Assembly (NCBI GenBank): GCA_015061945.1
Contig: SUVP01000006.1
Coordinates: 62,001 to 126,000 of the forward strand
Length of the DNA: 64,000 nt
Direction of reading: 5' to 3'
Source of the DNA: Opitutales bacterium
GTDB lineage: Bacteria; Verrucomicrobiota; Verrucomicrobiia; Opitutales; Intestinicryptomonadaceae
The notes below the pieces were generated by a model. That model did no database searches. It was not told the origin of the DNA and was given only the letters and a program-made list of their open reading frames with translations. Below are positions 12,480 to 52,544 of the stretch, piece after piece. The translations under genes were made by a program, and so were the position numbers. Every line of letters begins with the position of its first letter. The first letter of the stretch is position 1.

Positions 12480-13487
12480 ATGAAAAAAATAATATCTATA
12501 TTGGCGGTGGTTGCTTCGGCAACTGGATTGTTTGCTCAAACAGATCCACTTGTTGGATTCTATACGGGCAAGGTTATTAACGGATTTGGTTATCCATTTA
12601 GAGAGTCTCCAGACTTGTGCATAGAAATAACTCGATTTGGCGACAAGTATCAAGCAAAGCTTACCGAGAAGCCACTTGCTCGTGCCGATACATACGGATT
12701 TGTCAAAGACCTTGTTGCGACAGACGGCAAGTTGACGTTTAAAGATTTTGGTGATAGATTAAAACTCAGCGGTGAAATCACAGCTAAAGGTGGAGTCCTC
12801 AAAAGCAAGGATAGAAAAGGCAAAGACGTTATCGCTGAATTTAAGAAGACAGTGATTGTATCGCCAACAATGGGTTTGCAAGCTCCGCCAAATGCAATCG
12901 TTCTTTTTGACGGAACAAACACAGACCAATGGGAACACGTTGGTGGTGCAAAATGTTGTTGGGAAATCAAAGACGGTGCAATGATTTCGCGTCCACAAAA
13001 AGTAAACGGCAAACGTAAGGACGGCACAATCTTCACAAAGAAAAAGTTTGGTGCAGTTCGTATGCACCTCGAATTTAAAATTCCAGCAGAATATGACAAG
13101 GGAGAAGCTCGTGGAAATTCAGGTGTACACTTCGGACCATACGAAGTTCAGATTATCGATTCTTTTGGTTCTGAAGGCAACTGGTGGCAATGTGGTGCAA
13201 TTTACAGAATCCACGCACCAAAGGTAAATGCGTCGCTCGAACCAGAAGCTTGGCAAACATACGATATCGAATACACGCCAGCAAAATTTATGAATGGCAA
13301 AATGGTCGCATATCCGGAAATAACAGTTTACCAAAATGGCGTAAGAATTCAGTATAAAGAGCCAGTTTTCCACAAAACAAATGTTAATAACAAAACAGAG
13401 CCACTCCTCGACGAGCTTGTTCCATTGGGCTTGCAAGACCATGCACACCCAGTTGCGTTCAGAAATGTTTGGGTTGTTGCTCAATAA
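12480..13487 (+). CDS. Secreted 3-keto-disaccharide hydrolase (DUF1080 family)
   Basis: 335 residues with a Sec signal peptide (MKKIISILAVV ... GLFAQ, about 1-20). An N-terminal beta-rich region (about 25-125) precedes the DUF1080/3KDH lectin-like jelly-roll: LFDGTNTDQWEH, KDGTIFTKKKFGAVRMHLEF, NSGVHFGPYEVQIIDSFG, GAIYRIHAPKVNASLEPE and WQTYDIEY are the typical family blocks. Characterised members cleave 3-keto-glycosides produced by Gfo/Idh/MocA-type dehydrogenases; such a dehydrogenase lies at 48811-50112. The start is ATG 12480 because it gives the canonical signal peptide and fits the promoter; an in-frame TTG two codons upstream would add only two residues. It stands between two terminators, so it is its own unit within the secreted-hydrolase region. 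Substrate unknown. Confidence 0.85.
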   Translation: MKKIISILAVVASATGLFAQTDPLVGFYTGKVINGFGYPFRESPDLCIEITRFGDKYQAKLTEKPLARADTYGFVKDLVATDGKLTFKDFGDRLKLSGEITAKGGVLKSKDRKGKDVIAEFKKTVIVSPTMGLQAPPNAIVLFDGTNTDQWEHVGGAKCCWEIKDGAMISRPQKVNGKRKDGTIFTKKKFGAVRMHLEFKIPAEYDKGEARGNSGVHFGPYEVQIIDSFGSEGNWWQCGAIYRIHAPKVNASLEPEAWQTYDIEYTPAKFMNGKMVAYPEITVYQNGVRIQYKEPVFHKTNVNNKTEPLLDELVPLGLQDHAHPVAFRNVWVVAQ

Positions 13488-38375: not shown

Positions 38376-39209
38376 ATGAAGAAACTAATCTTATTGTTGG
38401 CGATGTCGGCATTGCTTTTTGTCGGGACATCGGTAAATGCAAACTCGAATAAATCGGCTCCTCGCAAAATTGCAGTACAGATGTATTCATTAAATAGATT
38501 CACTCTTGAGGAAGCTATTGAAAAGCTCAAGCCACTTGGAATTGACGCAATCGAATGCTATCGTGGGCAACGTTTGAGTAAGAAGTTCCCGAAGGCAAAA
38601 GTTGGTCCAGATCTAAATGCAGAAGAACGTGCATATATGAAAAAGCTTATCAGCGATGCTGGAATGAAAATGGTCAGCTTTGGCGTCATTAGTGTCCGTA
38701 AATATAGTGGCGAAGAAATTGAACCTATTTTCAAATTTGTAAAAGAAATGGGCGGAGAAAGAATCTTGACTGAATCGGCTGTGTACTTCTTGCCGATGTG
38801 GGATAAGATGGCTGAAAAATATGGAATCCAAGTATTGCTTCACCACCACGCAACAACAGATTATCCATATTGGGATACAGACTTTTTCAAAAAGCACGCT
38901 TCAGGATTTAAGAATATAAAATATAATCCAGACCCTGGACACTGGGCTCGTTCTGGTATCGACCCTGTTAAAGCTTTGAAAGAAGTTGCAGGGTATGTCG
39001 CAGGTATTCACTTCAAAGACCAACGTGAATTTGGTAATATCAAGAATCAGCCAGCACCATTTGGCAAAGGTGTTCTCGATGTTAAAGGTATGCTTGCAGA
39101 GCTCGATAAACAGGGATTTGACGGCTATTATGTTATCGAATACGAAGACAACTGGTTGAATAATATTCCAGAAATTAAGGAATGTGCAGAGTATCTCCGC
39201 AAAAACTAA
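38376..39209 (+). CDS. Secreted sugar-phosphate isomerase/epimerase-like TIM barrel protein
   Basis: 277 residues with signal peptide (MKKLILLLAMSALLFVGTSVNA). The body is an AP endonuclease 2 / xylose isomerase-like barrel: KIAVQMYSLNRFTLEEAIEKL, GIDAIECYRGQRLSKKFP, ILTESAVYFLPMWDKM, VLLHHHATTDYP, KYNPDPGHWARSG, AGIHFKDQRE and YYVIEYEDN. Metal ligands typical of the fold (Glu, Asp/His, His, Glu) are plausible at ESAV, DPGHW, HFKD and EYED. Export of an isomerase-like protein is unusual outside Bacteroidota/Verrucomicrobiota, where such proteins accompany 3-keto-sugar enzymes. Alternative: a cytoplasmic protein wrongly predicted as exported, but the signal is strong. The ATG at 38376 is used rather than the earlier in-frame start at 38328. 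Confidence 0.75.
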   Translation: MKKLILLLAMSALLFVGTSVNANSNKSAPRKIAVQMYSLNRFTLEEAIEKLKPLGIDAIECYRGQRLSKKFPKAKVGPDLNAEERAYMKKLISDAGMKMVSFGVISVRKYSGEEIEPIFKFVKEMGGERILTESAVYFLPMWDKMAEKYGIQVLLHHHATTDYPYWDTDFFKKHASGFKNIKYNPDPGHWARSGIDPVKALKEVAGYVAGIHFKDQREFGNIKNQPAPFGKGVLDVKGMLAELDKQGFDGYYVIEYEDNWLNNIPEIKECAEYLRKN

Positions 39210-46260: not shown

Positions 46261-48492
46261 TTACTTTCTTCTGCGATATACAGCGAGTGCGAGAGCGAGC
46301 GAGCCGAGGAGCATTGCCCATTCTGCTGGTTCTGGAACTGCTGTTGCAATGTATCCGTAGCCAGAGAAGTGTGATACGTCGAACGACAAAACACCGTCTT
46401 CGTATTTTACATTGTTTACGTCTTCTGCTTGGCTCCATTCGCCATTTTGTTCGTGGAAGATTGTGAAGTTTTCTGCATTGAGTGCTGAATCGCCAACGAA
46501 GAACGAAAGTGTAACAGATTCGCCTTGTTCGAGAACGATATCGAAGTCGAACGCAGCAGCTTTAAATTCGCTTGTCGATTCACCGACAAAAGAATTTGCG
46601 AAGTCTTCAACAAATGTTTCTGTTACGTTTTCAACCGACTTAACAACAGCCGATGTTTCTGTACCAATATCCAATGAGAGCGATTCATCTACAACGAGTT
46701 CACCTTTAACTTCAACACCAGCTTCACTGTCGTAATTTTTGATGATAAGTTGACCATTGTTTACAAGGTTAACACCGTCGAGCAAGCTACTATTTTCGAT
46801 TGTGAAAACAGCGTCTTTGTCGATAGTGATGCTTGTCATACCATTGATGATGCTATCAATCGAGCTTACGCCATAAACGAAAACATTAGAAGCAGTCGAC
46901 GAAAGGTTGATATTGCCAGTGAGGTTAGAAGTTTTGATGTTAACGATATCGAAGTTTTCGATAGTACCACCAAACGCACCATTGTAATTGTCGAACGAGA
47001 AAACCTTTGTGCCATTAACAACAGCGCCATTGATACCATTACCCGATACAACACCAGTGAATGCAATGTTGTTACCATCGCTATTGCTGAATACAACATT
47101 TGTGCCACCATTTACAATCGATGTACCATTTGATCCTTGATTACCACCACCATAGATGTTGCCAGCAATCGAGATATCATTTTCAGCATCAACAGTGATT
47201 TGCGAACCACCGTTAACTGTCATCTTGCCATAGTAAGTAGCATCTGCACCTTGAGCATAACCACCACCAAAGATATTGCCAGTGATTGCACCTCCTGTGA
47301 TGTTAATTGCTGTGCCGTTATCAATCATAATATTTGAATATGATTTGATTGTTACACTCTTTGTTGTTACGTTGTAAGAGGCATTTAAACCTAAAGCTAA
47401 TGATCCTGCGTATATTTGGTTTGCAATAGAAACTCCAACATAAGAAGAATTTCCTTCAGCTGTAATAGTTCCACCAGAAATATTTATAACAGTGTTATCC
47501 ATTGAGAGAGTTTGCCAACCAGCATTACCGCCAACGATGCCAGCTGTAACTGTTCCAGCTTTTATATTTGTTACAGTGGAACCTGTAACTTTATTGTTTA
47601 CTCCGCCAGACAAAATTCCAGAGAAAACAGATGAGTCTGATTTAACGACATTGCCACCATCAATATTGACAGTTATATTACCATCGATAACGCTTGTAAG
47701 ATTTTTATCAACACTTGATTCTTCAATATCGGCAATATAATTCCCACCAATAACACCTGCAACAGAACCTCCATTTATGATATTTACAGTTGATGTACCT
47801 GTGAGATTTCCAGGGCGTCTATTCCCTCCGACGACATAATTTGTCTTTCCATTTCCTGAAACTGTTACAGATGTGTTTCCGTACAAATTACCAATTCCAC
47901 CTGATGCACCTGACATTCCACCATACACTCCAATGCCCGATAATCTAGAAGTTAAACCTGTAATATTGCCTAAAATTTGAACATTTGTATTTGCTGTATA
48001 ATTTCCAGATTGTGCCATACCTAAACCAGTAATGTCACTATAATATGTTCCTCCGTAAATGTACATATTACCAGTACGCTTGTTTAATGTACCTTTGTAA
48101 TCGATGCTATGTGTGTTGTAATTATCAACAGCTGATACTTTGTCTGTGAAAGTGCCTCCATATATGTATACAGATGTTGAACCTTCTTCTGTTGCATTAA
48201 AACCGAGTTCAGCACCTCTAAACTTTTTTCCACTTGATACAATGCCTAATATTGTCTTGCCTATAGATGGACCTTTGCCGTCTTCTGTGCCTATTTTTGT
48301 GATACCTGTGCCACCGTAAGCATCGCCTGATATAGTCCCGCTCTTAATCCATACATTTTCGTATGATGCCCCTGATACACCCGATTGATTTGAGGAAACT
48401 GTGTAATTCCAACTTACATTTGAGATGTCTTCTTGTGCCATTGCCGAGAGGGCAAAGAGAGCTGATGTTATTGTTATGATTGATTTTTTCAT
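46261..48492 (-). CDS. Secreted Gly/Asn-rich beta-helix-like protein with PEP-CTERM anchor
   Basis: 743 residues: Sec signal peptide (MKKSIITITSALFALSAMAQ), then a long repeat-rich body with recurring GG-x-V/I-x-G-x-I-x-GG turns (GGSVAGVIGGNYIADIE, GGTITAEGNSSYVGVSI, GGAITGNIFGGGYAQG, GGNVVKSDSSVFSGILSGG) typical of a parallel beta-helix or autotransporter-like passenger. The C-terminus is a PEP-CTERM signal: VPEP (near 720), a hydrophobic helix AMLLGSLALALAV, and YRRRK. Such proteins are cleaved by exosortase, which is not in this window, and are usually linked to surface polysaccharide. The in-frame extension to 48711 is excluded because it lacks a signal peptide. Likely a surface adhesin or matrix protein; function unproven. 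Confidence 0.85.
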   Translation of the reverse strand: MKKSIITITSALFALSAMAQEDISNVSWNYTVSSNQSGVSGASYENVWIKSGTISGDAYGGTGITKIGTEDGKGPSIGKTILGIVSSGKKFRGAELGFNATEEGSTSVYIYGGTFTDKVSAVDNYNTHSIDYKGTLNKRTGNMYIYGGTYYSDITGLGMAQSGNYTANTNVQILGNITGLTSRLSGIGVYGGMSGASGGIGNLYGNTSVTVSGNGKTNYVVGGNRRPGNLTGTSTVNIINGGSVAGVIGGNYIADIEESSVDKNLTSVIDGNITVNIDGGNVVKSDSSVFSGILSGGVNNKVTGSTVTNIKAGTVTAGIVGGNAGWQTLSMDNTVINISGGTITAEGNSSYVGVSIANQIYAGSLALGLNASYNVTTKSVTIKSYSNIMIDNGTAINITGGAITGNIFGGGYAQGADATYYGKMTVNGGSQITVDAENDISIAGNIYGGGNQGSNGTSIVNGGTNVVFSNSDGNNIAFTGVVSGNGINGAVVNGTKVFSFDNYNGAFGGTIENFDIVNIKTSNLTGNINLSSTASNVFVYGVSSIDSIINGMTSITIDKDAVFTIENSSLLDGVNLVNNGQLIIKNYDSEAGVEVKGELVVDESLSLDIGTETSAVVKSVENVTETFVEDFANSFVGESTSEFKAAAFDFDIVLEQGESVTLSFFVGDSALNAENFTIFHEQNGEWSQAEDVNNVKYEDGVLSFDVSHFSGYGYIATAVPEPAEWAMLLGSLALALAVYRRRK

Positions 48493-48552
48493 TAATGTGT
48501 TCTTATTAACCTGTTTCTGATTTTTAAAAAAGAAAGAGATGTTGTTAAATGA

Positions 48553-48565
48553 TGACAACTTGTCA
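48553..48565. promoter_or_regulatory. Palindrome overlapping a -35-like TTGACA upstream of the PEP-CTERM gene
   Basis: TGACAA-C-TTGTCA, two perfect 6-base half-sites around one base, overlapping TTGACA on the minus strand. The arrangement fits a repressor operator, but could simply be a back-to-back pair of -35-like sequences. Confidence 0.4.
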
Positions 48566-48664
48566 ATAATTTTTTGAAAAAATTTTTTCGGAATTCGTTG
48601 ATTAACAATTAAGACAAAAAGTTTGTTTTTTGTAAGTATTTGAGAAGCCTTTGTGGAATACAAT

Positions 48665-48685
48665 AATCGGCTACAGTAGCCGATT
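48665..48685. repeat. Perfect inverted repeat in the intergenic region
   Basis: AATCGGCTA-CAG-TAGCCGATT, a 9-bp stem and 3-base loop, without a T run on either side, so it is not an obvious terminator. Confidence 0.6.
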
Positions 48686-48726
48686 TCAGTGCGATTACAC
48701 TTGAGTTGCAACTAATAAAAAACAAT

Positions 48727-48758
48727 AAAAAAAGACCACCTATGTCGGTGGTCTTTTT
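48727..48758 (-). terminator. Intrinsic terminator after the Gfo/Idh/MocA oxidoreductase gene
   Basis: Stem GACCACC / GGTGGTC with loop TATGTC; on the minus strand followed by seven T residues. It also carries T residues on the plus strand. Confidence 0.88.
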
Positions 48759-48810: not shown

Positions 48811-50112
48811 TTATGAAAGCTTGTAGACTCCAGGGAGTGGAACTTCAATTTGTGGCTTTTCGTTGAAGTCCCAATTCTTTGGTGCAAGCGATTGTTGCGA
48901 TTTCTTTGCAATCCAGCCATATTTGAAATTCAAGCCAGAGTAGCAACTTTCGCGTCCAGCAATCGCCATAAGGGTAGAGTCAACCATATCGCGAAGCATA
49001 TTGATTTTCTTGTTGTTCAACACGCTATCGATAAGCACACGGTGTTCTTCGACAAGTGCCTGTGGCTGATCCTTCGGAGCTTCCCATGGCTTTTGACCTG
49101 TAATGCGTTGCATACGGTTTTCATTCGTTTCGAGAATTCCCTTTGTGCCGACAAATCTTTCGAGAACATAGTCTTTCGATTTATTTTCGCGTCGGCTATA
49201 ACTTGCACAGTGTACGCCATTGCCAAAGTCGAAATCTACACCAAAGTGGCTGTATCTGTCGCCCCATTCAGGGTATGGATAATCCCATCTTCTACCGCCA
49301 ATACCATTTACTTCGATTGGATCTTTTCCCATTGCCCAACGGACAACGTCGAGGTTATGGACGTGTTGTTCAACGTAGCAGTCGCCCGATGCCCAGCGGA
49401 AAATGAACCAGTTGCGGATTTGATATTCCATTGATGTCGGGTCAGGGTTTTGCAAACGAAGTTTTTGTCCGTCTTGAATCCAGAAACGTGAATTGAGCCA
49501 GTATGCTTGGATTCCGATGATTTCACCGATTTGTCCGTTTTGGATACGGTCGATAGCTTCTTTGTATCCTGGGTGGAAACGGCGTTGTACACCAGGGATA
49601 ATTGTCAGACCTTTTTTGTCGGCAAGTTCTGCAATTTCGTAAAGTTCGCGAGCTTGTACAGGGTCGACACAAGCGGGCTTTTCAACAAAGATGTGTTTGC
49701 CTGCGTTGACTGCTTCTCGCAAGTGAAGTGGACGGAATACTGGTGGAGTTGCATTCAACACGATATCGCAATCTGCGTCGTGAATGAGTTGCTTGTATGC
49801 ATCCCAACCAACGTATTGGCGAGATGTTGGAATATCAAAATTACCTTTGCAGTAATCGAATCTACCTTCGTCTCTTGCAAAATTTTTAAGTGCAAGTTGG
49901 ATTCTGTCGGGGAAAAGATCGGCTACTGCGACGATTGTTGCACGTCCTTGTGCTGCGCAAAGGAAGTTTCTAACAGCCCCCATACCTCTGCCAGAACAGC
50001 CGATAAGACCAACTCTGAGCTTTGCTCTGTTGCCTTCTGCCCATGAGAATTTAGGTAATGTTGATGCCATACCCGCAAGCGATACTGTTTTTATAACGTC
50101 TCTTCTTTCCAT
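48811..50112 (-). CDS. Exported Gfo/Idh/MocA family oxidoreductase
   Basis: 433 residues. N-terminal Tat-like signal (MERRDVIKTVSLAGMA), Rossmann NAD(P) domain with LRVGLIGCSGRGMGAVRNF (31-49) and the catalytic EKP motif GKHIFVEKPACVDP, then the C-terminal GFO/IDH/MOCA beta-sheet domain with QRRFHPGYKEA and VEQHVHNLDVVRWAMG (conserved Asp/His). Family members oxidise sugars or glycosides, often at C3; exported members of this type occur with DUF1080 hydrolases and isomerases. The exported isomerase-like gene lies 33 bases upstream on the same strand, so the two are co-expressed. Substrate unknown; cofactor retention of exported members is usual for this subfamily. Confidence 0.9.
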   Translation of the reverse strand: MERRDVIKTVSLAGMASTLPKFSWAEGNRAKLRVGLIGCSGRGMGAVRNFLCAAQGRATIVAVADLFPDRIQLALKNFARDEGRFDYCKGNFDIPTSRQYVGWDAYKQLIHDADCDIVLNATPPVFRPLHLREAVNAGKHIFVEKPACVDPVQARELYEIAELADKKGLTIIPGVQRRFHPGYKEAIDRIQNGQIGEIIGIQAYWLNSRFWIQDGQKLRLQNPDPTSMEYQIRNWFIFRWASGDCYVEQHVHNLDVVRWAMGKDPIEVNGIGGRRWDYPYPEWGDRYSHFGVDFDFGNGVHCASYSRRENKSKDYVLERFVGTKGILETNENRMQRITGQKPWEAPKDQPQALVEEHRVLIDSVLNNKKINMLRDMVDSTLMAIAGRESCYSGLNFKYGWIAKKSQQSLAPKNWDFNEKPQIEVPLPGVYKLS

Positions 50113-50145
50113 TTTATTTCCTTTCGATATATAGTGTTTTAAATC

Positions 50146-51138
50146 TTATGATGCAACTGAATCGAGATCGCGATAGATTTGCAAAAGTTTTTGGTCGCCT
50201 GCGAGCGATTTATCTGTTTGTCCGTGTTCCAAACCGATGAAACCTCTGAAACCCTTGTCCCAAATTTTCTTGAGAACTTTTTTGTAATCTATAACGCCAG
50301 TTGTTGGTTCATTGCGTGCTGGAGCATCGGCAATATGGAACGATTCAATGCATTTCCAAACGTTTTCGTCGTCGAGAGAATCGTAGTTGCCAACCTGCAT
50401 ATATTCGTGGAATACGTCGTAAAGCAGACGGCAATGTGGATTATTTACATCACGAACAATCTTTGCACCGAGTGTTGCTCTGTCGCAATACATATTCGGA
50501 TGGCTGATTGTATTGAGTGGTTCAATTTCCATTATGATGCCATAGCGTTTGCAGAAGTCTGCACAAAACGACATATTTTCGACAACATTTTCGTATTGTT
50601 GTTCAGCTGAAAGTTCTTTGTCGACAATCCCAGGACCGATAATGAATGTTTTTGTGTCGAGCCTTTGCATAACTGCAAGTGTGTTTTCAAGCTGACGTGT
50701 CAAGCACTCACGGACTGCTTTCTTATTGCGGATTACTTTTTCTTTTGTCGGCACTTGGTTTGCTGTCATTACAGGGAAGAATTTTTCGTTCATCGAGCTG
50801 ATGCAACCCATTCCCAAACCGAGTTCTTTTACATATGCACCCAACGCTTTTTGTCTGTCTATTTCAGGTTGTTTGTAAACCTTATTAGGTTGGCAGAATA
50901 CGACACCTTCTACCGAATTAAAGCCATTGTCGGCAAGGAATTTTAGACGCTTAAATGGATCGCCCCCTGACGATGCTCTGAACAGCCCACGTGGAGCAAA
51001 TTTCATCTTGAACTTATTTGTACCATTTGCTGTTTTGCAACATTTGTCATTGCAATTAGGGCTTGTGCAACCGGCAAATAAGCCGGCAGTGCCTGCCATT
51101 GTGATTCCTACAAAACTTCTTCTTGATAATTTTTTCAT
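50146..51138 (-). CDS. Tat lipoprotein with hydroxypyruvate isomerase-like TIM barrel
   Basis: 330 residues. The N-terminus has both a twin-arginine motif (SRRSFVG) and a lipobox ending in Cys (GLFAGC), so a Tat-exported lipoprotein is likely. The body is an AP endonuclease 2-type barrel of the hydroxypyruvate isomerase/IolE kind: GFNSVEGVVFCQPNKV, TFIIGPGIVDK, GIIMEIEPLNTISHPN (metal-ligand Glu), HCRLLYDVFHEYMQVG, ESFHIADAPARNEP and FRGFIGLEHGQ. Metal ligands Glu, Asp, His and Glu appear retained. It probably works with the oxidoreductase of the next gene (33-base gap). Substrate unknown. Confidence 0.85.
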   Translation of the reverse strand: MKKLSRRSFVGITMAGTAGLFAGCTSPNCNDKCCKTANGTNKFKMKFAPRGLFRASSGGDPFKRLKFLADNGFNSVEGVVFCQPNKVYKQPEIDRQKALGAYVKELGLGMGCISSMNEKFFPVMTANQVPTKEKVIRNKKAVRECLTRQLENTLAVMQRLDTKTFIIGPGIVDKELSAEQQYENVVENMSFCADFCKRYGIIMEIEPLNTISHPNMYCDRATLGAKIVRDVNNPHCRLLYDVFHEYMQVGNYDSLDDENVWKCIESFHIADAPARNEPTTGVIDYKKVLKKIWDKGFRGFIGLEHGQTDKSLAGDQKLLQIYRDLDSVAS

Positions 51139-51198
51139 ATATAGATTTTTTGATTTATGAATATCTTGAATGTATATGCTCTCAAACGTATGAGAAGA

Positions 51199-51226
51199 TT
51201 TTTAGGTTTCTAAAAAAAACTGTCAA
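51199..51226 (-). promoter_or_regulatory. Candidate promoter of the isomerase-oxidoreductase pair
   Basis: Minus-strand -35 TTGACA (51226-51221), 16-bp spacer, weak -10 TAAAAA (51204-51199), giving a leader of about 55 bases. Confidence 0.4.
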
Positions 51227-51270: not shown

Positions 51271-51302
51271 AAAAAAAAATCCGTCATTGCGACGGATTTT
51301 TT
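51271..51302 (-). terminator. Intrinsic terminator after the MFS transporter gene
   Basis: Stem AAATCCGTC / GACGGATTT with loop ATTGC; on the minus strand followed by a run of T residues. Confidence 0.9.
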
Positions 51303-51326
51303 CAAGATTAGTATTTATGTATTTTC

Positions 51327-52544
51327 TTAAGCGTTCTTTGTGTCGTCTTTGAAGAGCAAGCAGAAGAATACTAAGAGGAATGCACAGATACCAGCTTCGA
51401 TAAAGAAGATGTTTTGCCAGTCTGTTGTTGTTGCACCAACTTTTGCAACTACACCTTCAACTGCTTTGTTTGTGTTGCTCGAGATAAGCCATTCCGAGAA
51501 GAATGTACCAATAATTTGAGCTACACCATAGAAGAAGAAGAACAAACCTTGTGCTTGTGCCTTAATATCGTCAGATGCTTTTTTGTCGATATACATTTGT
51601 GCTGCGACAAAGAAGAAACCGAAGATAATACCGTGTACTGCGATTGCACCCCAGTAGAGTGAGTGTGTTTCTGGAGCAAAACCACTGAGTACATATCTTA
51701 CAAGCATTGCCAAGATACCAATTGCCAATGTCTTTTTGAAACCAATCTTAACGATTGCGATAGGCAAGAGTGTCATAAACAACAATTCTGAAACTTGACC
51801 AACGCTGAGCGATGCTGTGATATCTTCAACGCCGAGCGATGAAAGGAATGAGCCGTACATCCAATAGATTGTGAATGCGACAGTCCAAACTACAACGCTT
51901 GCCATAAATACTGCAACGTTCTTATCTTTGAGCATCGAGAATGCACGAAGTCCGAGAGCGTCGACTGCCGACATAGGTTCGCCCTTTGCTTTTGGTGGAG
52001 TTGCTGGGAGGAACAAAGCAAAAACTGCTGATACTGCTGCTACACCAGCACCACAAGCCAATGGAATTGCTGTGCCGTCGATTACAGTGTCGAAGCAAGT
52101 TTTACCTACGAGAGCAAATACTGCTGCACAAATCCAACCGAGTGAACCGAATACACGGATAATCGGGAATGCTTCAGGTGTGCTGTTTGCCATTGCGATT
52201 GATGCTGTCAATCCCCATGTTGGCATATATGCACACATTGCGAGTACGAGCCATACGAAAATCATTGTCGGGTTTGTTGTGAAGAATGCTGCAAGGAGCA
52301 AGCCAGCTACGAGTGCATTAAGAACGCACAAAACTTTTTCACTATTTGCAACTCTGTCAGCAAACATACCAACTAATGGCGAGAAGATTGAACCGATTGC
52401 CATTGTCGACATAATGAGCGAGAACATCAGTCCTTTAACTTCCATTTTGTCGAGGTAGCTTGATAATTGTACCCAAAATGATGCTACAAGCATAAATTGC
52501 AAGAACATCATAATGCTCAATTTTGAACGGAGTATTAATGACAT
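51327..52544 (-). CDS. MFS transporter of the nucleoside:H+ symporter (NupG-like) type
   Basis: 405 residues with 12 apparent membrane helices. Features in common with NupG/XapB-type permeases: FLQFMLVASFWVQLSSYL (TM1), SPLVGMFADRV loop, EAFPIIRVFGSLGWICAA (NupG-like R-x-x-G-x-x-GW), WMYGSFLSSLG, and FFFFYGVAQIIGTFFSEW. A charged middle loop separates the halves. Members import nucleosides or sugars with protons. A good AAGGA Shine-Dalgarno precedes the ATG. It follows fumA by 36 bases with no terminator between, and precedes the isomerase-oxidoreductase pair. Given its neighbours, a sugar or keto-sugar substrate is also possible. Confidence 0.8.
   Translation of the reverse strand: MSLILRSKLSIMMFLQFMLVASFWVQLSSYLDKMEVKGLMFSLIMSTMAIGSIFSPLVGMFADRVANSEKVLCVLNALVAGLLLAAFFTTNPTMIFVWLVLAMCAYMPTWGLTASIAMANSTPEAFPIIRVFGSLGWICAAVFALVGKTCFDTVIDGTAIPLACGAGVAAVSAVFALFLPATPPKAKGEPMSAVDALGLRAFSMLKDKNVAVFMASVVVWTVAFTIYWMYGSFLSSLGVEDITASLSVGQVSELLFMTLLPIAIVKIGFKKTLAIGILAMLVRYVLSGFAPETHSLYWGAIAVHGIIFGFFFVAAQMYIDKKASDDIKAQAQGLFFFFYGVAQIIGTFFSEWLISSNTNKAVEGVVAKVGATTTDWQNIFFIEAGICAFLLVFFCLLFKDDTKNA

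What the first reader, a model, noticed from the sequence alone, without database searches (positions are those of the whole stretch)
48811..51138. Tat-exported oxidoreductase and isomerase: possible extracytoplasmic 3-keto-glycoside pathway
Seen: Gfo/Idh/MocA oxidoreductase and isomerase-like barrel both with RR signal sequences, adjacent; another exported isomerase at 38376 and an exported DUF1080 hydrolase at 12480. Known: DUF1080 (3KDH) enzymes cleave 3-keto-glycosides made by Gfo/Idh/MocA dehydrogenases. Inference: glycosides are oxidised, cleaved and isomerised outside the cytoplasm and imported, perhaps by the MFS permease at 51327.
Basis: partly seen in the sequence, partly recalled or inferred. 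Interest (0 to 1): 0.55.

Follow-up and report, generated by a model that had tools for sequence, protein, structure and literature searches.

The report
Exported sugar-oxidising enzyme pair
A gut bacterium of the Verrucomicrobiota carries a two-gene unit whose enzymes, a sugar dehydrogenase and a sugar-isomerase-like barrel, both look set to be shipped out of the cytoplasm to work on sugars there; this resembles a route known from Bacteroides but with a different set of parts.

Summary
48811-50112 (-) is a Gfo/Idh/MocA dehydrogenase, 50146-51138 (-) a xylose-isomerase-like TIM barrel; both have twin-arginine signals, the barrel also a lipobox. They form a two-gene unit between terminators. 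Among 19 family genomes the barrel has 13 ortholog loci; in all 13 the dehydrogenase follows, RR is kept in both, and no other gene recurs in more than 4 loci. The MFS gene (nucleoside-symporter family) lies behind a terminator and is unlinked elsewhere; the DUF1080 gene is 35 kb away. Yet related barrels do sit with a Tat dehydrogenase and a DUF1080 hydrolase (three genomes of one distant genus), and in 12 of 22 paralogous family loci head-to-head with a second, Sec-exported barrel. That second kind, including the barrel at 38376, has the His-x-His signature of the beta-eliminase AtOGE; the pair's barrel does not and looks like an isomerase/epimerase (OtnI/YcjR-like). The general route is known in Bacteroides (BT2156-BT2159); this is a variant. 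Substrate unknown; nothing was assayed.

The parts
48811..50112 (-). Tat-exported Gfo/Idh/MocA dehydrogenase, 433 aa; second gene of the unit. EKP motif at 144-146, invariant D65 at the end of the second strand, E248-Q-H-V-H252-N-L-D255 where many other Gfo proteins of the genome have D-x-x-x-H
50146..51138 (-). Tat-exported, probably lipid-anchored xylose-isomerase-like TIM barrel, 330 aa; first gene of the unit. Metal-site residues E206, D241, H268, E304; E206-P-L208 where the known eliminases have a His
48729..48758 (-). intrinsic terminator downstream of the dehydrogenase gene (12-pair stem, then T-run)
   Evidence: -18.2 kcal/mol; 0 of 200 shuffles fold as well
51273..51303 (-). terminator hairpin between the MFS gene and the barrel gene; separates the MFS gene from the unit
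   Evidence: -15.4 kcal/mol, z -4.2; 1 of 200 shuffles as good; read from the sequence; not listed by the scan
51198..51226 (-). sigma-70-like promoter match (TTGACA-17-AAAAAT) upstream of the barrel gene; weak evidence
   Evidence: 25 such sites found against 20.8 expected in the region, so not significant by itself
38376..39209 (+). Sec-exported TIM barrel of the other kind: H156-x-H158, D186, H212, E255, nearly the residue pattern and spacing of the beta-eliminase AtOGE; candidate cleaving enzyme, not linked to the unit on the chromosome
12480..13487 (+). Sec-exported DUF1080 (3-keto-disaccharide hydrolase family) protein; one of 5 PF06439 matches in the genome, not linked to the unit
51327..52544 (-). 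MFS permease of the Nuc_H_symport family; neighbour, not part of the unit

Best explanation
The unit encodes two enzymes that act one after the other on a sugar or glycoside outside the cytoplasm. The dehydrogenase folds with its NAD in the cytoplasm, is exported by Tat and oxidises a ring hydroxyl, most likely C3. The lipid-anchored, metal-dependent barrel then rearranges the keto-sugar: C2/C4 epimerisation or keto-isomerisation as in YcjR/OtnI, or hydration of a glycal as LgdB2/AtHYD do. Bond cleavage, where it happens, is done by separately encoded exported enzymes: His-x-His barrels such as the one at 38376, or DUF1080 hydrolases. Because NADH cannot be exchanged freely there, the bound cofactor should be reoxidised on the spot by reducing a keto-sugar, so the whole would be redox-neutral. 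Shown by sequence: the two families, the signals, the unit, its conservation, the metal-site residues, the two kinds of barrel. Inferred: C3, the order of steps, cofactor retention, substrate.
For: Families and signals. Pair and order: 13 of 13 ortholog loci, own included, the dehydrogenase cut by the contig end in two; no other gene in more than 4 of the 13. Barrel site: E206, D241 and E304 in 14 of 14 rows, H268 in 13 of 14. Profile and fold matches of the barrel: 3ngf, 1k77 (YgbM), 6wn6 (YcjR, 3-keto-D-glucoside 4-epimerase), ketose 3-epimerases. Dehydrogenase model: NAD-dependent sulfoquinovosidases, levoglucosan dehydrogenase, DgpA, GFOR, all at Z 29-32. Links of the barrel's family to the pathway: consecutive barrel/dehydrogenase/DUF1080 genes in G053, G245, G401, one genus; of 22 paralogous E-P-L barrels in the family (E <= 1e-31), 12 head-to-head with a His-x-His barrel, one behind a dehydrogenase and a His-x-His barrel on the same strand (G007:C19), one followed by a dehydrogenase (G015). 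In the own genome 64%-identical Tat dehydrogenases are followed by proteins with homologous N-terminal parts ending in DUF1080 (C10) or in a barrel (C13). Published: BT2158 is periplasmic and works with BT2156 or BT2157 (passages).
Against: No activity, localisation or expression data. The window dehydrogenase is far from BT_2158_fam (37.5 bits, cut-off 750) and its best NCBIfam hit is inositol 2-dehydrogenase (76.6, cut-off 355); the barrel's is hydroxypyruvate isomerase (87.6, cut-off 353). The DUF1080-linked barrels belong to the sister group and their dehydrogenases score only 34-43 bits with the A2 profile. 8 of the 22 paralogous E-P-L barrels have neither a dehydrogenase nor a His-x-His barrel nor DUF1080 directly beside them, and outside the family 9 of 13 loci have no dehydrogenase beside the barrel. 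No cleaving enzyme is in the unit. One review reports that BT2157 with BT2158 alone did not convert glucosinolates in B. fragilis unless BT2156 or BT2159 was added.
Confidence: 0.5

Rival explanations
1. The pair is itself a complete cleaving system: the dehydrogenase makes a 3-keto-glycoside and the barrel breaks the glycosidic bond by beta-elimination, as LgdA/LgdB1 or GlycDH/AtOGE do.
For: A sugar 3-dehydrogenase with a sugar-phosphate-isomerase-type barrel does this in described systems (PMC10628242, PMC7676230). In B. theta BT2158 with the isomerase-family protein BT2156 is reported to suffice for glucosinolate conversion.
Against: The catalytic His two residues after the beta-5 metal ligand (AtOGE H134, PuCGE H143) is Leu208 in the window protein, in 14 of 14 A1 rows and in the two nearest own-genome paralogs. 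The barrel profile does not list AtOGE (8BVK) at E <= 0.001, whereas the His-x-His barrels find it at 1e-16. LgdB1 residues could not be checked.
Confidence: 0.14
2. The dehydrogenase alone is an NAD-dependent glycosidase (GH188/GH109-like: oxidise, eliminate, add water, reduce, all on one enzyme) and the barrel processes the released sugar.
For: Best-ranked fold matches are NAD-dependent glycoside hydrolases 8qc5, 8qc2, 8qc8, 8qc6 (Z 31.6-32.0). Such enzymes need no external cofactor exchange, which suits export.
Against: Levoglucosan dehydrogenase, inositol dehydrogenases, DgpA and GFOR lie within Z 1-3 of these, so the ranking does not discriminate. No entry named GH109 is among the 58 profile matches (absence only).
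Confidence: 0.13
3. The pair acts on free polyols or small keto-acids rather than on glycosides: an inositol-dehydrogenase-like enzyme with a hydroxypyruvate/2-oxo-tetronate-isomerase-like partner.
For: Best NCBIfam hits are inositol 2-dehydrogenase and hydroxypyruvate or 2-oxo-tetronate isomerase; R275, E277, P278 and G281 of the barrel align with R-H-E-P...G of 3ngf and 1k77.
Against: All these hits are far below the curated cut-offs. Related barrels are linked to DUF1080 or to His-x-His barrels.
Confidence: 0.17
4. One reading: oxidation by this dehydrogenase, cleavage by the DUF1080 at 12480, isomerisation by this barrel, import by the MFS at 51327.
For: A barrel/dehydrogenase/DUF1080 run exists in three genomes of one distant genus. 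The MFS ortholog occurs in 14 of 19 family genomes, the same 14 that hold the dehydrogenase ortholog (fragments in G016 and G018, contig end in G012); 5 genomes lack both (Fisher p 9e-5, ignoring relatedness). In G011 the MFS lies 2 kb from a Tat dehydrogenase (74% identical to the C10 one) and a HEAT-repeat protein like the C10 DUF1080 fusion, on the other strand.
Against: MFS behind a terminator, in the nucleoside-symporter family, not beside the pair in other genomes, and beside IU_nuc_hydro-family genes in G001 and G002. No DUF1080 near the pair in 12 other loci. Relatedness confounds the co-occurrence: three of the five negatives are one genus, and G008 matched none of five proteins.
Confidence: 0.06

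Closest known systems
BT2156-BT2159 system of Bacteroides thetaiotaomicron (two Gfo dehydrogenases, DUF1080 3-ketotrehalose hydrolase, sugar isomerase family protein)
   Same: Gfo/Idh/MocA dehydrogenase with a sugar-phosphate-isomerase-type protein; BT2158 is described as periplasmic (PMC11300592, passage); gene identities from PMC10434189, PMC10734470 and PMC9007349, passages only.
   Different: Two-gene unit without DUF1080 or second dehydrogenase; dehydrogenase far from BT_2158_fam; barrel with a Tat signal and, in 6 of 13 orthologs by my reading, a lipobox.
E. coli YcjR, 3-keto-D-glucoside 4-epimerase (6wn6)
   Same: Fold (Z 25.3, 248 residues, 2.9 A); the profile alignment pairs E206, D241, H268 and E304 of the window barrel with like residues; a Gfo enzyme as partner (recalled).
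   Different: 17% identity; cytoplasmic (recalled); the barrel is nearer to 3ngf and 1k77 (93.7 and 75.1 bits against 43.5).
AtOGE/AtHYD operon of Agrobacterium and LgdA-B1-B2-C of Bacillus smithii
   Same: Sugar 3-dehydrogenase with sugar-phosphate-isomerase-type proteins for oxidation, elimination, hydration and reduction (PMC10628242, PMC7676230). The 38376 barrel and 12 others in the genome share the His-x-His site of AtOGE.
   Different: No export is mentioned in what I read of them. The pair's barrel lacks the eliminase His; whether it resembles LgdB2 or AtHYD could not be tested (sequences not available here).
Glucose-fructose oxidoreductase of Zymomonas mobilis (GFOR)
   Same: Gfo fold (Z about 30); Tat export with a carried cofactor (recalled).
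   Different: 14-16% identity; the window dehydrogenase has an acidic residue (D65) at the end of strand 2, which speaks for NAD rather than NADP (rule recalled; strand).

Membership tests
Gfo/Idh/MocA oxidoreductases (PF01408) | Rossmann domain over the curated cut-off, EKP motif | tested here: met
   42.4 bits against 24; E144-K145-P146 invariant in 12 of 12 rows
Xylose-isomerase-like TIM barrels (PF01261) | Domain over the curated cut-off and TIM fold | tested here: met
   97.3 bits against 31.1; model pLDDT 88, Z up to 28 to such barrels
BT2158-type glycoside 3-dehydrogenase (NF058561) | Score over 750 bits | tested here: not met
   37.5 bits, partial match
BT2156-BT2159-type system | DUF1080 gene in the same unit | tested here: not met
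   The window's DUF1080 is 35 kb away; none found near the pair in 12 other family loci of 8-19 kb
BT2156-BT2159-type system | Extracytoplasmic location of the dehydrogenase | tested here: inconclusive
   RR signals conserved, but prediction only; the TAT_signal model matches 4 of 12 and 4 of 14 rows
CGE/OGE 3-keto-glycoside beta-eliminases | Catalytic His two residues after the beta-5 metal ligand | tested here: not met
   Pair's barrel: E206-P-L208. The 38376 barrel has H156-x-H158, so it meets this one feature; spacing 0/2/30/56/99 against 0/2/31/57/101 in AtOGE (AtOGE residues)
Hydroxypyruvate isomerase (TIGR03234) | Score over 353 bits | tested here: not met
   87.6 bits
YcjR-like keto-sugar epimerases | E-D-H-E metal site in the barrel | tested here: met
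   E206, D241, H268, E304; the His is Gln in the distant L103 row and in paralog L039
YcjR-like keto-sugar epimerases | Epimerase activity on 3-keto-glycosides | not testable with these tools
   needs enzyme assay
GFOR-type enzymes | Cofactor held tightly during export and catalysis | not testable with these tools
   needs purified protein

The most novel reading that the evidence does not exclude
The pair is a self-contained, redox-neutral editor of sugar stereochemistry outside the cytoplasm: the exported dehydrogenase keeps its NAD bound, oxidises a ring hydroxyl, the lipid-anchored barrel inverts or shifts the neighbouring carbon, and the same dehydrogenase re-reduces the keto group with the hydride it still holds, turning glycosides that the cell cannot use into ones that its exported hydrolases accept.
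Probability: 0.18. Interest if true: 0.68.

Novelty: new variant of a known kind. Interest (0 to 1): 0.42.

Why it matters
Oxidative (3-keto) glycoside breakdown outside the cytoplasm is known from Bacteroides; for gut Verrucomicrobiota I know of little (my impression, one search). This genome carries a large exported set: of 28 Gfo proteins over the Pfam cut-off, 17 passed my RR-signal filter and 2 more have RK (L022 has RR but failed the filter), beside 24 PF01261 matches and 5 DUF1080 matches. The exported barrels divide into two kinds told apart by one residue and open to test: eliminase-like (His-x-His) and isomerase-like (Glu-Pro-Leu). The conserved pair raises a direct question: how does a Tat-exported NAD enzyme get its cofactor reoxidised?

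Tried and rejected
MFS as part of the unit: rejected, though co-occurrence speaks for some tie. DUF1080 at 12480 as part of the unit: rejected for this genome (one Gfo-DUF1080 neighbourhood within 4 kb, on C10, and no barrel-DUF1080 one). Pair's barrel as an OGE/CGE-type eliminase: not met. GH109: no entry so named among the profile matches or the 50 listed fold matches, which is absence only.

Relatives outside the phylum: the scan of genome contigs gave 49 loci, 12 in the family and 37 distant (25-43% over the best segment; 35 Acidobacteriota, one Chloroflexi, one Armatimonadetes by their titles). In these 37 the A2 profile found a dehydrogenase directly beside the barrel only in L145. Phylum search: 13 of 387 genomes, own included, match at E <= 1e-40, at most 5 candidates per genome being scored, so a lower bound. 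Of the 13 loci outside the family, 4 have a dehydrogenase next door by the A2 profile (L189, L190, L192, L193) and 9 do not. The tree puts the 13 pair barrels in one group (96/87); the DUF1080-linked barrels are in the sister group, so that link is by family, not by orthology. L186 and L188 (second copies of own loci) were left out of the tree.

Mended on re-check: I first read the head-to-head arrangement as 12 of 12, but I had picked those 12 because the coordinates already showed it. The other 10 paralogous E-P-L barrels of the family were then fetched: one has a dehydrogenase and a His-x-His barrel upstream, one a dehydrogenase downstream, 8 have none directly beside them. The three genomes with the DUF1080 run are one genus, not three independent cases. 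For these two reasons I lowered the best explanation from 0.55 to 0.5 and raised rivals slightly (eliminase 0.12 to 0.14, polyol 0.15 to 0.17, full chain 0.05 to 0.06).

Scripts: one search showed the motifs with gaps and was redone ungapped. The motif pattern missed one domain in each four-barrel fusion and the second barrel of L166, which one search shows as HNH (L051). Literature: ten searches were answered, of which 14 and 89 found nothing. I make no claim that the pair is absent from print. Papers: PMC10628242 sections 7 and 8 and passages; PMC7676230, PMC9007349, PMC11300592, PMC10434189, PMC10734470, PMC12385236, PMC11501099, PMC10654075 and PMC11879859 passages only. The primary papers on BT2156-2160 and on the 3-keto glycan pathway were not held. 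PMC11501099 adds that BT2157 or BT2158 deletions had no growth defect on raffinose-family sugars.
Full report
WHAT IS THERE. Window 48811-50112 (-) encodes a 433-residue Gfo/Idh/MocA protein and 50146-51138 (-) a 330-residue PF01261 TIM barrel. The barrel gene is upstream; 33 bases separate its stop codon from the dehydrogenase start. A terminator hairpin follows the dehydrogenase (48729-48758) and another lies between the MFS gene and the barrel gene (51273-51303); both fold far better than shuffles. A promoter-like match lies upstream of the barrel gene, but such matches are not clearly more frequent in the region than expected. So the two genes most likely form their own transcription unit and the MFS gene is not in it.

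EXPORT. Both N-termini have a twin-arginine motif followed by a hydrophobic stretch. In the barrel this ends in L-F-A-G-C, a lipobox, so it is probably a Tat lipoprotein; 6 of 13 orthologs, own included, have such a cysteine by my reading. RR is invariant in 14 of 14 aligned barrels and 12 of 12 aligned dehydrogenases, while most of the rest of the signal region varies. NCBIfam's Tat model recognises only a minority (4 of 14, 4 of 12) and neither window protein. The genome has one TatC. Export is well supported by conservation but not shown.

CONSERVATION OF THE PAIR. Of 19 genomes of the family, 13 hold an ortholog of the barrel (own included; the others 42-74% identical), and in all 13 the dehydrogenase follows it on the same strand (cut by the contig end in G016 and G018). 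G012 has the dehydrogenase at the very end of a contig. Clustering of the genes around the 13 loci lists, apart from frames inside these two genes, only an ABC-type ATPase family in 4 loci among groups found in 3 or more. G381, of another family of the order, also has a barrel followed by a dehydrogenase of this kind (466 bits with the A2 profile), though its barrel is of the sister group. In the own genome six barrels have a same-strand Gfo gene within 2.5 kb, against 0.7 expected.

THE ORGANISM. Named contigs that carry the orthologs are uncultured Opitutales and Verrucomicrobiota MAGs and Puniceicoccaceae Marseille-Q1082. The window is G000:C8:62001-126000 of a 2.5-Mb genome.

THE BARREL. 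Its model (mean pLDDT 88) is closest to 3ngf, 1k77 (YgbM) and 6wn6 (YcjR, 3-keto-D-glucoside 4-epimerase), then ketose 3-epimerases; the profile search agrees. The alignments place E206, D241, H268 and E304 on the matching positions of these enzymes. In the known 3-keto-glycoside beta-eliminases a catalytic His stands two residues after the first metal ligand (AtOGE H132/H134; PuCGE H143; PMC10628242). In the pair's barrel that residue is Leu208 (E-P-L).

TWO KINDS OF EXPORTED BARREL. All 24 PF01261 matches of the genome were aligned. Three Tat-exported ones, including the finding, read E-P-L; a fourth (L038) reads E-N-S. Thirteen read H-x-H, among them the barrel at 38376 (H156-x-H158, D186, H212, E255), whose spacing 0/2/30/56/99 is close to AtOGE's 0/2/31/57/101. 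Twelve of the thirteen were aligned as A3 (L054, part of a fused protein, was left out); both His are invariant in 12 of 12, and the A3 profile finds AtOGE (8BVK; entry confirmed) at 1e-16. The A1 profile of the pair's barrel does not list 8BVK at E <= 0.001. Among the other seven, L037, without a signal, reads E-V-H, as in the CGE eliminases. So the two 'isomerases' of the finding are different enzymes, and the one at 38376 is the better candidate for bond cleavage.

LINKS TO THE KETO-SUGAR PATHWAY. (1) One search lists 22 further E-P-L barrels in the family at E <= 1e-31. Twelve lie head-to-head with a His-x-His barrel (these were picked from coordinates that already showed it); in G001 and G002 the partner is a fusion of four barrels in about 1055 residues, and a dehydrogenase follows the E-P-L barrel. 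Of the other ten, G007:C19 has dehydrogenase, His-x-His barrel and E-P-L barrel in a row, G015 has a dehydrogenase after the barrel, and 8 have none of these directly beside them. (2) In G053, G245 and G401, all of one genus in another family of the phylum, a related barrel, a Tat-exported dehydrogenase and an exported DUF1080 protein are consecutive (PF06439 confirmed). The G053 dehydrogenase is a long but sub-threshold match to BT_2158_fam (257 bits, cut-off 750). (3) In the own genome two Tat dehydrogenases 64% identical are each followed by a large exported protein; the N-terminal parts are homologous (35% over 572 positions) but one ends in DUF1080 and the other in a barrel. Thus DUF1080 and barrel domains seem to stand in for each other beside such dehydrogenases. 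This echoes B. theta, where BT2158 is reported to need either BT2156 (sugar phosphate isomerase/epimerase) or BT2157 (DUF1080) (passages of PMC12385236, PMC10734470, PMC10434189, PMC9007349), and BT2158 is called periplasmic (PMC11300592). The same review says that in B. fragilis BT2157 and BT2158 alone were not enough.

THE MFS GENE. PF03825 (nucleoside:H+ symporter family), 234 bits, below the cut-off of TIGR00889. It has orthologs in 14 of 19 family genomes. In 11 of the 12 other pair loci the genes upstream of the barrel are visible and none is the MFS; in G014 the contig starts 325 bases upstream. Thirteen other MFS loci were fetched and none holds the barrel or this dehydrogenase. In G001 and G002 IU_nuc_hydro-family genes are beside it. 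In its favour as a partner: the 14 genomes with the MFS are the 14 with the dehydrogenase ortholog, and in G011 a Tat dehydrogenase of the C10 kind (74%) with a HEAT-repeat protein lies 2 kb away on the other strand. Relatedness explains much of the first point: three negatives are one genus, and G008 matched none of five proteins.

THE DEHYDROGENASE. It belongs to a subgroup (6 of 28 in the genome) that reads E-Q-x-V-H-N-L-D where many others read D-x-x-x-H; the alignment to inositol dehydrogenase 4n54 pairs Glu248 with Asp and His252 with His. D65 ends strand 2 of the model, which by the usual rule (recalled) suggests NAD. The model (mean pLDDT 77) fits NAD-dependent glycosidases, sugar dehydrogenases and GFOR about equally well (Z 29-32), so the reaction cannot be read from the fold.

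HOW IT MOST LIKELY WORKS. The dehydrogenase leaves the cytoplasm with its NAD, oxidises a ring hydroxyl, and the barrel rearranges the keto-sugar; cleavage falls to His-x-His barrels or DUF1080 enzymes encoded elsewhere; the reduced cofactor is reoxidised by returning hydride to a keto-sugar. Every step after 'exported and paired' is inference.

NOVELTY. The route is known in Bacteroides; the two-gene Tat unit with an isomerase-type lipoprotein barrel is a variant. Interest is moderate.

Noticed in passing
G002:C41 and G001:C21 (L211:1724-4891, L212:1728-4889): A single exported open frame of about 1055 residues with four TIM barrel domains in a row (His-x-His seen in three of the four by the script), head-to-head with a Tat-exported barrel.
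   Followed up: partly
L172:5267-7390 (own C10) and L169:3059-5473 (own C13): Paralogous exported proteins behind 64%-identical Tat dehydrogenases; homologous N-terminal parts (HEAT_2 in one), but the C-terminal domain is DUF1080 in one and a TIM barrel in the other: a domain swap.
   Followed up: yes
L221:1917-5055 (G007:C19): Dehydrogenase, His-x-His barrel and E-P-L barrel in a row on one strand; one search reports one in-frame stop inside the match of the His-x-His barrel.
   Followed up: no
window 46261-48711 (-): Repetitive, glycine-rich protein with a PEP-CTERM-like end, next to the pair; no Pfam match, sub-threshold NCBIfam PEP-CTERM hits.
   Followed up: no
L103:11988-13010 (G015), L157 and L158 (G002, G001): IU_nuc_hydro-family proteins with signal-like N-termini stand near a paralogous barrel-dehydrogenase pair (G015) and beside the MFS ortholog (G001, G002).
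   Followed up: partly
   Followed up: no
own genome C1:305335-306654 and C4:120409-121707 (L029, L024): Two dehydrogenases of the same E-Q-x-V-H-N-L-D subgroup have Arg-Lys in place of the twin arginine.
   Followed up: no
own genome C3:125452-126366 (L037): A barrel without a signal in the C3 cluster reads Glu-x-His at the site, as in the C-glycoside eliminases.
   Followed up: no
loci L153-L156, L160, L163: A lipoprotein-like gene (META domain in L153) recurs near the MFS ortholog in six of 12 loci, and in five of them an ABM-family gene (Pfam-confirmed in L154).
   Followed up: partly
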